Below the pieces are notes generated by a model that saw only the letters and a program-made list of their open reading frames with translations, was not told where the DNA came from and did not search any database. A DNA stretch of 64,000 nt from Thiomicrospira sp. XS5 (GTDB taxonomy: Bacteria; Pseudomonadota; Gammaproteobacteria; Thiomicrospirales; Thiomicrospiraceae), in the NCBI RefSeq assembly GCF_001507555.1, contig NZ_LQBO01000001.1, forward strand, positions 558,001-622,000, read 5' to 3'. How positions within the stretch are numbered: the first letter of the stretch is position 1; every line of letters begins with the position of its first letter. A program made the position numbers and the translations under genes. This document shows positions 806 to 58,862 of the stretch, piece after piece.

Positions 806-1645
806 TTAAGCGCTCATTAAACGTCGCACTTCGTCGATGACGCTCGCGGTTTCCGGGCGGACGCCGCGCCACAGATAAAAGGCTTCGGCCGCCTGGCCGA
901 CCAGCATCCCCAGTCCGTCTCGTGTCCTGCATTCCGGTTGCAAGCCTTTCGCCCAATCCATAAAGACGGTCGGTTCCGTGCCGTACATCATGTCGTACAC
1001 CAAACTGTCTGCCCCAACGACGTCTCCGCTTACCGGCGGCAACTTGCCTTCCAAACTGGCCGAGGTGCCGTTGATGATGATATCGTAGCCGCCGGGTGGG
1101 CAGGGAATGTCTTCCCAGCCGCTGGCGGTGATCGGAATGTCGGTGTCAAAACGCTGTCCCAGAACTTCGGCGCGTTTGGCGGTGCGATTGGCAATATGCA
1201 CCAGGCCTGGCCGTTTTTCTAGAATGGGTTGCAGTACGCCTTGCACGGCGCCGCCGGCGCCGAGAATCAAAACCTGTTTGCCTTCAAACGGGCAAGCGGC
1301 ATTGATTTCAATGTCCATCACCAGGCCGACGCCGTCGGTGTTGTCGCCGAAGGTTTTACCGTCCTGAAATTGAAAGGTGTTGACCGCATGCGCGACCTGA
1401 GCGCGTTCCGTCAGTTCGTCGGCGTATTCGAAAGCATCCAGTTTATAAGGGACGGTGATATTAATCCCTTTATACCCTTGCGCTTTTAAATCCGCCATGG
1501 CCCACTGGAAGGTGGTGTCTTCGGTGTCGACGCGAATGGCTTCGTACACCAGGTCCTGATGGGTTTGTTCGGCAAACAGCCGGTGAATCAATGGGGATTT
1601 GGAGTGGGCGATGGGGTCGCCCACCACGGCGTAATAATCGGTCAT
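806..1645 (-). CDS. aroE: Shikimate dehydrogenase (NADP+)
   Basis: AroE reduces 3-dehydroshikimate to shikimate in chorismate and aromatic amino-acid synthesis. The 279-residue length is normal. The N-terminal substrate domain shows GDPIAHSKSPLIH and NITVPYK, the latter with the catalytic Lys. NTDGVGL and the nucleotide loop GAGGAVQGV follow, then NRT, typical of the NADP-binding site. It lies 22 bp downstream of hemB on the same strand and may be cotranscribed with it. One copy of the CCAGGCCTGG repeat lies inside the gene and reads as RPGLV. Confidence 0.95.
   Translation of the reverse strand: MTDYYAVVGDPIAHSKSPLIHRLFAEQTHQDLVYEAIRVDTEDTTFQWAMADLKAQGYKGINITVPYKLDAFEYADELTERAQVAHAVNTFQFQDGKTFGDNTDGVGLVMDIEINAACPFEGKQVLILGAGGAVQGVLQPILEKRPGLVHIANRTAKRAEVLGQRFDTDIPITASGWEDIPCPPGGYDIIINGTSASLEGKLPPVSGDVVGADSLVYDMMYGTEPTVFMDWAKGLQPECRTRDGLGMLVGQAAEAFYLWRGVRPETASVIDEVRRLMSA
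1201..1210. repeat. CCAGGCCTGG palindrome, copy in aroE
   Basis: Exact 10-bp copy, flanked on the plus strand by CCGTTTTT and on the minus strand read in aroE as RPGLV. Confidence 0.9.
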
Positions 1646-1667
1646 AAGCGTTGTGTGACTCCGGTGG

Positions 1668-2669
1668 TTATTTTTCGGCCAACCACTGGGCGACCACTTT
1701 AGCGTAATACGTCAGGATGCCATCGGCACCGGCGCGTTTACAGCTTAATAATGTTTCTAACGCCACTTCGCGCTCGTTGATCCAGCCGTTGAGTGCGGCG
1801 GCTTTCAGCATGGCGTATTCGCCGCTGACGTGATACACGAAGGTGGGAGCTTTGAATTCTTGTTTGACTCGGTGAACGATGTCCAGGTACGGGATGCCCG
1901 GTTTCACCATCACCATGTCGGCGCCTTCATTAATGTCCATTGCCACTTCATGTAATGCTTCGTCGCTGTTGGCCGGATCCATCTGGTACGTTTTTTTGTC
2001 GGCTTTGCCGAGGTTGCCGGAGGAACCGACGGCGTCACGGAAAGGCCCGTAATAAGCCGACGCGTATTTCGCGGAATAAGCCATGATGCGGGTGTGAATG
2101 TGCCCGTGTTCTTCCAGCAGTTCGCGAATTTCGATGATGCGTCCGTCCATCATGTCGGACGGGGCGACGACATCGGCACCGGCTTCGGCATGGGAAAGCG
2201 CCTGCTTCATTAAAACGTCGATGGTGTCGTCATTTAATACATAGCCGGTGTCGTCGATGATCCCATCCTGGCCGTGGGTGGTGTAAGGGTCTAATGCGAC
2301 ATCCGTCATGACACCCATTTCAGGAACCGCTTCTTTTACGGCGCGAACCGCGCGTTGCACTAAACCGTCGGGGTTATAGGCTTCGGTGGCTTCCAGCGTT
2401 TTGGTGTCCGGATTCGGTACCGGGAACAGCGCGATCATCGGGATGCCGAGTTCAAATAATGCTTGAGCTTCCAAGATTAAAAGGTCTATACTCAATCGCT
2501 CGATATCCGGCATGGATTTGACCGGTTCCCGTTGGTTATGGCCTTCAATCACGAACATCGGATAGATAAGGTCTTGAGCGGTGAGAACATTTTCACTCAT
2601 CAGGCGGCGTGAGAAAGCGTCTTTGCGCATGCGGCGCATACGCGTGATCGGGAACTGACGTTCGATCAT
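1668..2669 (-). CDS. hemB: Porphobilinogen synthase (delta-aminolevulinate dehydratase)
   Basis: HemB condenses two 5-aminolevulinate molecules to porphobilinogen in haem and sirohaem synthesis. The protein is 333 residues, normal for the family. It opens with the typical [16 protein letters not shown] stretch. Two Schiff-base lysines are visible, in [18 protein letters not shown] and [10 protein letters not shown]. The N-terminal metal-binding Cys triad of zinc enzymes is absent; an Asp-rich segment around [16 protein letters not shown] suggests the magnesium-type enzyme. An AGGAG sits 5 nt before the ATG. It is divergent from the small unknown gene at 2784. Confidence 0.96.
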
Positions 2670-2783
2670 GGAGAACTCCTGTCATTAATAGGTGATTCGA
2701 AATGATACTCTTGTCGGTTGAAAAAATAAAGCCAGCGCCGACGCACCGGGCGTCGCGGCCCACTAGAATGAAAAGGAAACGCC

Positions 2784-57322: not shown

Positions 57323-57336
57323 GCTTCTAGCCGCCG

Positions 57337-58272
57337 TCAGGACGACGTTGTCTGCCCCTTATTGACGGTCAGTGCCAGCACGCCGGCAATCACCAGTGAA
57401 ATGCCAATGGCGTGATAAAGGCTGAAGGGCTCATTCAGTAACCAAACCGCCAGCCCGATGGTGACGATGGGCCCCAAAGTGCCGATGATACCGGTTTGTG
57501 CCGGTCCAATCAGCGCAATGGCCTCGGCAATCATAAAGCTGGGGATGACGGTGCTGAAAATCGCCAACAAAATCAGCCACAACCAGGCCATGGGCGTGAC
57601 GTTTAAATGCTCGAAACCGATGAGGCCGGCAAAATACGCCAACACGAACAGGCTGGAAACACTCATCGCCATACTGGTGAACCAAAGACTGCCCAACTGG
57701 TGAATAATCTTTTTACTGATAAGCACATAGAACGAGAAGCTGAGCGCCGCCAAAAACACCAGCATGGTGCCCAGCAGCGTGTTGTCTCCGCCCAGTTTTT
57801 CAGCCAAAGACTGCTCTTGGTAAAACACCAACCAAAGCCCGCCATAAGTGATGACCAAAGAGAAGAGAATCTTTCGCGTGATGGGCGTCTTGAAAAACAA
57901 GGCACCGAGTACGGCCACCAGAATTGGATAAGTGAACAGCGTTAGGCGCTCGAGTTGCGCGGAAATCATTTCCAGGCCTTTTAAATCCAGCCAGGATGAC
58001 AGGAAATACCCGATAAAGCCGAGAAAGAAAATCCAACCGAATTTTTCCCAGCGGTTGTCCGGGTGACGGCCCGGCGTTCGCGCCAACCAAATCAGTATGG
58101 CGAGGTAAATCGGCAAAGCAATCGCCATGCGTAACATCAGCACGCTGTCAGTGTTCAGGCCTTCCGCATACGCCAGCTTAATGAAAATCGATTTCAGCGA
58201 AAACAGGGCGGTGCCGAAGACGGCCAAGAAAAAACCGAACCAAAGCGGCGACTGGGCAAGCGACCGCATCAT
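57337..58272 (-). CDS. EamA/DMT-family transporter
   Basis: A 311-residue inner-membrane protein with ten predicted segments in two EamA repeats, as in drug/metabolite exporters. The substrate is not evident. The start is the ATG overlapping the stop of the methyltransferase gene by 4 nt (ATGA); the frame upstream is discarded. It is last in the trkA-trkH-methyltransferase-EamA series. Confidence 0.85.
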   Translation of the reverse strand: MMRSLAQSPLWFGFFLAVFGTALFSLKSIFIKLAYAEGLNTDSVLMLRMAIALPIYLAILIWLARTPGRHPDNRWEKFGWIFFLGFIGYFLSSWLDLKGLEMISAQLERLTLFTYPILVAVLGALFFKTPITRKILFSLVITYGGLWLVFYQEQSLAEKLGGDNTLLGTMLVFLAALSFSFYVLISKKIIHQLGSLWFTSMAMSVSSLFVLAYFAGLIGFEHLNVTPMAWLWLILLAIFSTVIPSFMIAEAIALIGPAQTGIIGTLGPIVTIGLAVWLLNEPFSLYHAIGISLVIAGVLALTVNKGQTTSS

Positions 58273-58862
58273 CGCGCCGGTTTGGTGGCGATCAGCCAAC
58301 CATAACGGTGGGATGACTCGCCGTCCGCCAGCCAGCCTTCGCCCTGAATGTCGACCTTGAAATTCGACCAGGCCTGGCCGTTTTCAGTTAACTTGACCAG
58401 TTCGCCGGGGGCCAGATAAAAATCCGGATTTTGCGGGCCGTTGGCCTGCACGGGGCCTAAAAAGGTTTGCACAAACACTTGTCCGCCCGGCTTGAGAGCC
58501 TGAGCGATTTGTGGCCAGAGTGACCGGTTCAGGTAGCGGCTGAGGGTGATGACGTCGTACTGTTGGTATGGAAACAGCATCTGGTCGAAGTCGCTGATGG
58601 TGCAGTGAATGGGGAGACGGTTCACCGCCGCCCAGTTATTGAGGTGCGTTAACGCCACATCGGAAATGTCCCAGGCATCCACCGTTAAACCGCATTGCGC
58701 CATCAAACGTGCATTACCGCCCAGGCCGCAGGCCAAATCCAACGCCCGGCCTTTTAACGGTAGTTTTTTAAGGTGTTGTTGCAAGACCCACGCCGGGCGA
58801 ACCGGTTGTTTGGGGTCCGATTCGGCGTATTTTCGATCCCATTTTTGGGCGGTGTTTGACAT
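58269..58862 (-). CDS. Class I SAM-dependent methyltransferase
   Basis: About 197 residues. The SAM motif ALDLACGLGGNARLMAQCG is followed by DAWDIS (acidic loop) and DVITLSRYLNRSLWP. The N-terminal KWDRKYAE and the short length resemble TehB and tellurite-resistance or thiopurine-type methyltransferases. Substrate unknown. TGGAG precedes the ATG at 58862, which shares one base with the trkH stop. A repeat copy encodes GQAWS. Confidence 0.82.
   Translation of the reverse strand: MSNTAQKWDRKYAESDPKQPVRPAWVLQQHLKKLPLKGRALDLACGLGGNARLMAQCGLTVDAWDISDVALTHLNNWAAVNRLPIHCTISDFDQMLFPYQQYDVITLSRYLNRSLWPQIAQALKPGGQVFVQTFLGPVQANGPQNPDFYLAPGELVKLTENGQAWSNFKVDIQGEGWLADGESSHRYGWLIATKPAR
58368..58377. repeat. 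CCAGGCCTGG palindrome, copy in the methyltransferase gene
   Basis: Exact copy with GAAAAC and CGAATTT flanks on the minus strand; encodes GQAWS. Confidence 0.9.

What the first reader, a model, noticed from the sequence alone, without database searches (positions are those of the whole stretch)
1201..58377. CCAGGCCTGG is a highly iterated 10-bp palindrome, 21 exact copies in 64 kb
Exact copies were found at 1201, 8268, 13924, 15042, 17110, 18280, 20785, 21619, 23671, 23782, 26652, 27724, 29690, 32351, 34227, 39977, 43497, 44055, 46866, 56713 and 58368. With GC near 52% (estimated by eye), fewer than 0.1 copy is expected by chance. Thirteen copies lie inside genes and use all three frames (QAW, PGL, RPG), so no protein motif explains them. 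Near-matches with one change occur at 19700, 20380, 32967, 41122, 49824 and 60181, as if copies decay or arise by point mutation. Such behaviour is known for cyanobacterial HIP1 and for DNA-uptake signals of Pasteurellaceae and Neisseria. The core is also two abutted CCWGG methylation sites and contains AGGCCT, so a methylation or restriction role is an alternative. I know of no report for this motif in this group.
Basis: partly seen in the sequence, partly recalled or inferred. Interest (0 to 1): 0.9.

Follow-up and report, generated by a model that had tools for sequence, protein, structure and literature searches.

The report
Candidate DNA uptake signal with dialects
A ten-letter palindrome is repeated hundreds of times in the genomes of one family of sulfur-oxidizing bacteria, is kept almost letter for letter, and is swapped for related "dialects" in some sister species, which suggests a self-recognition tag for taking up DNA of one's own kind, though uptake itself has not been tested.

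Summary
In detail: 21 exact CCAGGCCTGG in the window (0.02 expected), 677 in the 2.63-Mb genome. The 10-mer is the core of a longer site with AT tracts about 10 bp on either side of the dyad. Against a relative at 7.45% divergence, 99 of 109 comparable copies are intact (control windows 1934 of 3525); 16 of 17 differences are substitutions; silent positions inside the motif are nearly frozen (2 of 141 changed, 27.1 expected). Counts above 100 occur in 27 of 62 family genomes and in none of 271 sampled outside it. Some family genomes with few or no copies carry other motifs: ACCGGCCGGT (1,025 copies), ACAGGCCGGG, or AAAATCTGCCAGG[C/T]TGGG; between two species the last differs T to C at the same orthologous sites. 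Three islands, one a Mu-like prophage, are poor in it. C5 and N6/N4 methyltransferases and Vsr were not detected in this genome. Best explanation: a DNA uptake signal with lineage dialects, unusual in its palindromic core. Uptake is untested and no receptor was found; a chromosome-binding protein is the main rival.

The parts
1201..1210 (.). motif copy, in gene 806-1645(-)
   Evidence: kept in G010, G001, G005, G002
8268..8277 (.). motif copy, in gene 7898-9103(+)
   Evidence: kept in G010, G001; changed in G005, G002
13924..13933 (.). motif copy, in gene 13556-14005(-)
   Evidence: kept in G010, G005, G002; changed in G001
15042..15051 (.). motif copy, intergenic, A-left/T-right flanks
   Evidence: kept in G010, G001
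17110..17119 (.). motif copy, in gene 17103-17639(-)
   Evidence: kept in G010
18280..18289 (.). motif copy, intergenic, A-left/T-right flanks
   Evidence: kept in G010
20785..20794 (.). motif copy, at a gene edge or intergenic
   Evidence: kept in G010, G002
21619..21628 (.). motif copy, intergenic, A-left/T-right flanks
   Evidence: not aligned in G010
23671..23680 (.). motif copy, in metH-like gene 22834-26568(-)
   Evidence: kept in G010, G005, G002; changed in G001, G003, G004, G008
23782..23791 (.). motif copy, in metH-like gene 22834-26568(-)
   Evidence: kept in G001, G005, G002; one change in G010; changed in G003, G004, G008
26652..26661 (.). motif copy, intergenic
   Evidence: one change in G010
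27724..27733 (.). motif copy, intergenic by my caller
   Evidence: kept in G010
29690..29699 (.). motif copy, in gene 29283-30410(+)
   Evidence: kept in G010; changed in G001, G005, G002, G003, G004, G008
32351..32360 (.). motif copy, in gene 32283-33248(-)
   Evidence: kept in G010
34227..34236 (.). motif copy, intergenic, A-left/T-right flanks
   Evidence: kept in G010
39977..39986 (.). motif copy, in gene 39933-40862(+)
   Evidence: kept in G010
43497..43506 (.). motif copy, intergenic by my caller, although an ORF 42719-43537 covers it
   Evidence: not aligned in G010
44055..44064 (.). motif copy, in gene 43581-44828(-)
   Evidence: kept in G010
46866..46875 (.). motif copy, in TonB-receptor-like gene 46587-48803(+) (name recalled from its look, not searched)
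   Evidence: kept in G010
56713..56722 (.). motif copy, intergenic
   Evidence: kept in G001; one change in G010
58368..58377 (.). motif copy, intergenic by my caller, although an ORF 58269-58949 covers it
   Evidence: kept in G010

Best explanation
CCAGGCCTGG is the core of a DNA uptake signal of the Thiomicrospira/Thiomicrorhabdus/Hydrogenovibrio family. Shown here: hundreds of copies genome-wide; a longer site with AT tracts about one helical turn from the centre; conservation of the DNA letters independent of the protein; gain and loss by point change; excess between genes; scarcity in three islands; replacement by other motifs in some sister lineages; and, between two species, a one-letter difference at the same orthologous sites. 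Inferred: a surface receptor (by analogy with ComP of Neisseria, probably a minor type IV pilin) binds the core and the neighbouring A tract; fragments carrying the site are taken up and recombined preferentially, so matching sites spread and mismatched ones are corrected towards the receptor's preference. When the preference changes, sites across the genome follow and a dialect arises; when specificity is lost, the copies decay.
For: Abundance: 677 copies. Footprint: AT 0.93 and 0.91 at 9.5 and 10.5 bp from the dyad (background 0.48), 0.76 at 18.5 bp. Constraint: divergence 0.5-1.4% in the core, 3.1% and 2.1% at 9.5 and 10.5 bp, 4-12% at the other flanking positions out to 39.5 bp; 99 of 109 copies kept versus 1934 of 3525 control windows; 2 of 141 third codon positions changed versus 27.1 expected. 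At about 74% identity: kept in G001 5 of 8, G005 4 of 6, G002 5 of 7 (a rough neutral figure is 0.745^10 = 0.05 per site). Location: 66 genic, 56 intergenic, 1 edge of 123, in sequence called 86-88% coding. Islands: 4 copies in 54.6 kb versus 15.9 expected. Other motifs. Same-site T/C difference. Labels clustered on a TypA tree. ComEC present in this genome. Similar plan in the Haemophilus signal (core plus AT tracts; passages of PMC1939737) and in Neisseriaceae dialects (PMC3630211, abstract and section 6).
Against: No uptake was measured. Bakkali 2007 states that known uptake sequences are not palindromes (passage); the A and D motifs are. No receptor was found: a prepilin-motif scan of the genes called in 464 kb returned none; the other 82% of the genome was not read. 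ComEC does not predict the motif: it is found in 26 of 27 genomes with 106 or more copies (missing in G035, 82% complete) and in 30 of 35 with fewer, among them G051 and G030, where no motif was detected in 100 and 80 kb. A-motif and C-motif sites do not coincide in the few places where they could be compared, so a common origin rests on shared half-site and register. The AT tracts are not seen in the Thiomicrospira profile.
Confidence: 0.6

Rival explanations
1. Binding site of an abundant dimeric chromosome-organizing or regulatory protein inside the cell. The dimer reads the palindrome and the AT tracts; the different motifs reflect protein-DNA co-evolution.
For: Twofold symmetry with AT tracts on both sides in the A motif; spacing slightly more even than random (CV 0.85, 274 of 5000 random draws as low, 102 sites); letter-level constraint. 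No uptake evidence excludes it.
Against: The B and C motifs are not palindromic and show the A tract on one side only; no motif was detected in G051, G030 and G050; a one-letter difference at orthologous sites genome-wide (11 alignable sites) is easier with a drive such as uptake than with co-evolution site by site; fewer copies in islands, which slow accrual could also give.
Confidence: 0.2
2. Methylation-linked HIP in the sense of Elhai 2015: a solitary methyltransferase with biased mismatch repair creates and keeps the palindrome without function of its own; or Dcm/Vsr repair acting on the two CCWGG halves.
For: GC-rich, palindromic, highly iterated, replaced by other GC-rich palindromes in some relatives, as HIP1 is in cyanobacteria (PMC4390886: abstract, sections 7 and 12, first part of section 18). 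The nearest relative G010 (673 copies) does have one match each to PF00145, PF03852 and PF01555, and PF01555 occurs in 6 of 9 g6 genomes.
Against: No match to the three families in the window's genome. Presence in genomes with 106 or more copies against fewer: PF00145 9 of 27 and 15 of 35; PF03852 1 of 27 and 4 of 35; PF01555 11 of 27 and 13 of 35 (my tally, matches under the cut-off included). A methylation site would not need AT tracts 10 bp away or the reduced divergence there. The C motif is not palindromic. Not tested: PF02086, type I, type IIG and other methyltransferases.
Confidence: 0.1
3. Transcription terminators or hairpins, or a mobile mini-element.
For: 39 of 56 intergenic copies have an A-rich left and T-rich right flank, like a bidirectional terminator.
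Against: Only 15 of 66 genic copies have it; 17 are A..A and 12 T..T, which cannot pair. 16 of 17 differences between two species are substitutions, one is an indel, so copies are not as a rule inserted or excised.
Confidence: 0.05
4. A recombination hotspot (Chi-like) or chromosome-polarity signal.
For: Short, iterated, conserved.
Against: Chi and KOPS are directional (recalled); a palindrome carries no direction; the C motif is near balance between record strands (G003 51/70, G004 79/93, G008 104/101), though bias relative to replication was not tested.
Confidence: 0.05

Closest known systems
Uptake signal sequence (USS) of Pasteurellaceae
   Same: Short exact core in very many copies, extended consensus with AT-rich segments, genic and intergenic copies, excess outside genes (passages of PMC1939737).
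   Different: The Haemophilus consensus in those passages has its AT segments on one side of a non-palindromic core; here the A motif is palindromic with tracts on both sides. Core sequences are unrelated.
DNA uptake sequence (DUS) dialects of Neisseriaceae
   Same: Several lineage-specific dialects that share part of the core, distributed in line with phylogeny, absent from some genera of the family (PMC3630211, abstract and section 6).
   Different: Different sequence; Neisseriaceae dialects all keep CTG; here symmetric and asymmetric motifs occur in one family. No receptor identified here.
HIP1 and alternate HIPs of cyanobacteria
   Same: Highly iterated GC-rich palindrome, replaced by other palindromes in some relatives (PMC4390886).
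   Different: Elhai reports a matching methyltransferase wherever a sequence is highly over-represented; none of three families tested is found in this genome. HIP1 density about 1 per kb (same paper); here 1 per 3.9 kb.

Membership tests
DNA uptake signal (USS/DUS) | short sequence strongly over-represented genome-wide | tested here: met
   677 copies; 123 in 464 kb against 0.35-2.0 expected, orders 1-4
DNA uptake signal (USS/DUS) | copies in genes and, in excess, between genes | tested here: met
   66 genic, 56 intergenic, 1 edge of 123 with 86-88% of sequence called coding; small genes missed by my caller would lower the excess
DNA uptake signal (USS/DUS) | lineage-specific dialects | tested here: met
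   that A, B, C and D are dialects of one signal is inferred
DNA uptake signal (USS/DUS) | scarce in recently acquired DNA | tested here: met
   three islands, 54.6 kb, 4 copies versus 15.9 expected; small sample, cut chosen after seeing the runs
DNA uptake signal (USS/DUS) | competence machinery present | tested here: met
   only ComEC (PF03772) tested: present in this genome and 56 of 62 in the family; not specific to motif bearers
DNA uptake signal (USS/DUS) | core not palindromic (Bakkali 2007) | tested here: not met
   A and D are perfect 10-bp palindromes; B and C are not. It describes the two known families; I do not treat it as definitional, but it is one reason for the moderate confidence
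DNA uptake signal (USS/DUS) | preferential uptake of DNA carrying it | not testable with these tools
   needs an uptake assay
DNA uptake signal (USS/DUS) | dedicated surface receptor (minor pilin) | tested here: inconclusive
   no prepilin motif in the genes called in 464 kb of 2.63 Mb
Highly iterated palindrome with methyltransferase (HIP) | highly iterated palindrome | tested here: met
Highly iterated palindrome with methyltransferase (HIP) | methyltransferase able to methylate it in the same genome | tested here: inconclusive
   PF00145 and PF01555 give no match in G000; PF02086 and other methyltransferase families were not searched
Dcm/Vsr very-short-patch repair product | Dcm and Vsr present | tested here: not met
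   PF00145 and PF03852 give no match in G000

The most novel reading that the evidence does not exclude
A further bacterial family with a DNA uptake signal, with a palindromic core read from both sides, in which the signal has moved between symmetric and asymmetric forms and a genome's sites were rewritten in place, letter by letter, to follow the receptor.
Probability: 0.5. Interest if true: 0.85.

Novelty: new variant of a known kind. Interest (0 to 1): 0.75.

Why it matters
Uptake signals are known from Pasteurellaceae and Neisseriaceae (PMC7811141, abstract start in a listing), and whether they reflect adaptation or molecular drive is an old question (recalled). A free-living, culturable family with several motifs, genomes without any detected, and a species pair whose orthologous sites differ by the same letter would be a natural experiment for that question and for receptor-signal co-evolution. 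It would also imply self-biased natural transformation in sulfur-oxidizing autotrophs, for which my searches listed no report.

Tried and rejected
Dcm, Vsr repair, C5 and N6/N4 methyltransferases: not detected in this genome and not tracking the motif. Local feature of the window: rejected. Protein motif: rejected, three frames and nearly frozen silent positions. Terminators or inserted elements as the general explanation: rejected. Order-8 Markov test: unsuitable. Full-text search for the 10-mer: 49 papers hold it, 20 were listed and none looked relevant by title and abstract start; the other 29 were not seen. Gapped-word scan for a hidden motif: the three controls stood out (scores 84, 33, 36); in G051, G030 and G050 (80-100 kb each) nothing did; for G042, G024, G028, G016 and a pool of G037/G038/G044 (25-56 kb) the scan is weak; G029 had borderline words, and one of its pieces (L188) lies within the range of another (L159). 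Order-level pattern search returned the same 62 genomes as the family. Prepilin scan: nothing. Correction made on review: I pooled overlapping pieces for G046, G047 and G009, and pooled the named record L080 with G022; one search repeats these without overlap and apart, and the profiles stand.
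Full report
OBSERVATION. The genome (G000, 2,632,826 bases, 23 contigs) has 677; the reversed-letter control has 0. I read 464 kb of it (window plus C1:1-400000): 123 copies, against 0.35 to 2.0 expected from Markov orders 1 to 4; from order 5 upward the model starts to contain the motif (12.6, 46, 99, 124). 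By z-score under order 3 it is the top 10-mer of that sequence.

ANATOMY. The 10-mer is a core. Around 123 sites, AT is 0.93 and 0.91 at 9.5 and 10.5 bp from the dyad (background 0.48), pyrimidine prevails at 7.5 bp on the left strand as written (C 0.55, T 0.35), and AT is 0.76 at 18.5 bp. Because the core is a palindrome, profiles over both strands are symmetric by construction; per-site counts show that both sides are usually AT-rich: in 69 of 123 sites both five-base tracts have at least four A/T. Orienting each site by its better A tract gives A 0.81-0.89 there and A or T about equally on the other side; orienting inflates the first figure. One-change variants of the core are enriched mainly at the outermost base (GCAGGCCTGG 22, TCAGGCCTGG 18, about 2 expected each).

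LOCATION. With a simple codon-model gene caller (no annotation was available), 66 copies lie in genes, 56 between genes and 1 on an edge; the coding fraction is 0.876 and 0.860 in the two pieces. The intergenic share (46%) is about 3.6 times the intergenic share of the sequence; genes missed by the caller would lower this. Frames: QAW 38, PGL 16, RPG 12. Intergenic copies have an A-left/T-right arrangement in 39 of 56, genic ones in 15 of 66. Spacing is slightly more even than random (CV 0.85; 274 of 5000 random draws as low), a weak effect.

CONSTRAINT AND DYNAMICS. G010 is the nearest relative (TypA 100% identical; 673 copies). I fetched 456 kb of it. Over 374,732 aligned columns with 7.45% mismatches, 109 own and 106 G010 copies were comparable and 99 are shared. 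Of 17 differences, 14 are single substitutions, 2 double, 1 an indel. Control 10-bp windows with eight G/C are intact in 1934 of 3525. Divergence is 0.5-1.4% inside the core, 3.1% and 2.1% at 9.5 and 10.5 bp, and 4-12% at the other positions out to 39.5 bp; this profile pools own and G010 sites, so shared sites count twice. Third codon positions in the motif that could change silently: 2 of 141 changed, 27.1 expected from the same codons elsewhere. In the window, 19 of 21 copies aligned with G010 and 16 are kept, the other three differing by one substitution each. At about 74% identity: kept 5 of 8 (G001), 4 of 6 (G005), 5 of 7 (G002); in the C-motif genomes G008, G003 and G004, 0 of 3 each.

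DISTRIBUTION. In the family, which is also the order here (62 genomes), counts are 0-44 in 35 genomes and 106-856 in 27. In a class sample of 274 genomes, 3 of them from the family, the other 271 have 0 to 39. So genus groups g5 and g1 contain Thiomicrorhabdus and Hydrogenovibrio; g6 as Thiomicrospira is a less direct inference (G060 C3 has the length of the Thiomicrospira sp. ALE5 contig). The window's genome is in g1.

OTHER MOTIFS. G026 has no CCAGGCCTGG but 1,025 ACCGGCCGGT; the other 61 genomes have 0-15. G003, G004 and G008 carry AAAATCTGCCAGG[C or T]TGGGG: GCCAGGYTGGGG occurs 121, 172 and 205 times there and 0-5 times in the other 59 genomes. ACAGGCCGGG occurs 6 times in 20 kb of G022 and 7 times in 23.7 kb of the named T. 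cannonii record (L080). G009 has CCAGGGGTGG, 5 copies in L084 and 4 in L230, which overlap. G023, G046, G047 and G041 have a relaxed CAGGCCTG core. I call these A (CCAGGCCTGG), B (G022), C (G003, G004, G008, and G009 as a variant) and D (G026). In B and C the A tract lies on one side only, in the same register as in A; in D and the relaxed-A genomes AT is raised at about 10 bp; in the Thiomicrospira set it is not. That all are dialects of one signal is my inference.

SAME-SITE CHANGE. The most telling comparison is G004 with G003 (78% and 75.5% identity over the two pieces compared): of 18 CCAGGTTGG sites in 100 kb of G004, 11 could be aligned; 8 read CCAGGCTGG in G003 (one after moving a gap), one has the C plus another change, two are lost, none keeps the T. 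From the G003 side, of 21 sites in two pieces 11 gave an alignment with G004, 8 of them with the T form. G004 and G008 share 4 of 4 alignable sites unchanged. So sites stayed in place while one letter differs at all intact ones. Between A and C genomes no coinciding site was seen, but very few were comparable.

PHYLOGENY. A quick TypA DNA tree of 51 of the 62 genomes (for the other 11 I had no TypA stretch) needs 11 changes among seven labels; shuffled mean 22.3. The three C genomes form one side of a branch (support 100). Seven genomes labelled 'none' (G030, G040, G050, G024, G028, G042, G051) group with G026 (support 99). The label 'none' is firm only for G051, G030 and G050 (80-100 kb); others rest on 16-60 kb, and G033 and G039 were labelled so without any motif scan. 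Genus g1 is not one clade in this single-gene tree, so I draw no more from it.

ISLANDS. Own regions over 5 kb without a match in the 456 kb of G010 that I fetched, leaving out the first 17 kb, whose counterpart was mostly not fetched: three, 54.6 kb, 4 copies, 15.9 expected, P 4e-4. They could exist elsewhere in G010. They hold a Mu-like prophage (transposase, portal, protein F, protease, tape measure, from 10 of 30 ORFs; 3 copies), a secretin/T2SSE/T2SSF/ParA-like cluster (5 of 9 ORFs; 1 copy) and one 2,429-aa ORF (no Pfam match; 0 copies). I chose the cut after seeing the runs. Overall density is 0.292 per kb aligned and 0.155 unaligned.

ENZYMES. Of 27 genomes with 106 or more copies against 35 with fewer: PF00145 in 9 and 15, PF03852 in 1 and 4, PF01555 in 11 and 13, ComEC in 26 and 30 (my tally, weak matches included). 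The window's genome has ComEC (859-aa open frame) and none of the other three. None of the four tracks the motif. G050 is a 99%-complete genome in 9 contigs without ComEC and without a detected motif; the other five without ComEC (G018, G019, G035, G036, G043) are in 100-520 contigs.

MECHANISM. What the data show is a DNA site, recognized as DNA over some 24-40 bp, that some process keeps intact and, in one pair, rewrote in concert. Preferential uptake followed by recombination would do this by itself and would predict dialects, loss, intergenic excess and scarcity in newcomers. The receptor is inferred by analogy with ComP (PMC3868556, listing) and with ComN proposed for Pasteurellaceae (PMC12616744, abstract and passages). 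An intracellular binding protein explains the symmetry well, the concerted change and one-sided motifs less well. The methylation rival lacks its enzymes in the three families tested.

NOVELTY. 'DNA uptake sequence' with Thiomicrospira: 0 papers; 'uptake sequence' with Piscirickettsiaceae: 0. Of 50 papers, 15 were listed, none with 'natural competence'; of 214, 12 were listed, none with 'DNA uptake' or 'uptake signal'; one search gave one paper, unrelated by title. Searches listed 5 and 7 papers, none on this group by title. The library holds open-licence papers only, and lists were capped. I file it as a new variant of a known kind, function unproven.

Noticed in passing
L039-L041 (own C1:67593-103729): Mu-like prophage region of about 36 kb with no match in the fetched part of G010 and only 3 motif copies.
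   Followed up: partly
L052:12082-19371: A 2,429-aa ORF without any Pfam match, in an island with no match in the fetched part of G010 and no motif copy.
   Followed up: partly
L045:10042-19613: Cluster with secretin, T2SSE, T2SSF and ParA-like genes (tad-like by recall), with no match in the fetched part of G010.
   Followed up: partly
L231, L234, L235: Pieces of G037, G044 and G045 have frequent runs of six to eight G (pool of G037, G038 and G044), with no detected motif.
   Followed up: no
L239-L240 (G016): A repeated element containing AGTCGGGGACCCC (4 copies of its 10-mers in 40 kb).
   Followed up: no
L159-L161 (G029): GAGTTCAGGA (6 in 60 kb) and words of a GAACTCGCTACGCTC-like repeat; another element or a weak dialect.
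   Followed up: partly
window 22834-26568: The methionine synthase is 89-91% identical to Thiomicrorhabdus records (L143, L076, L133) but 82% to Hydrogenovibrio S010_36 (L084), although the latter matches G009, in the window's own genus group; possible gene transfer or a taxonomy effect.
   Followed up: no
G050: A 99%-complete genome without ComEC and without a detected motif.
   Followed up: partly
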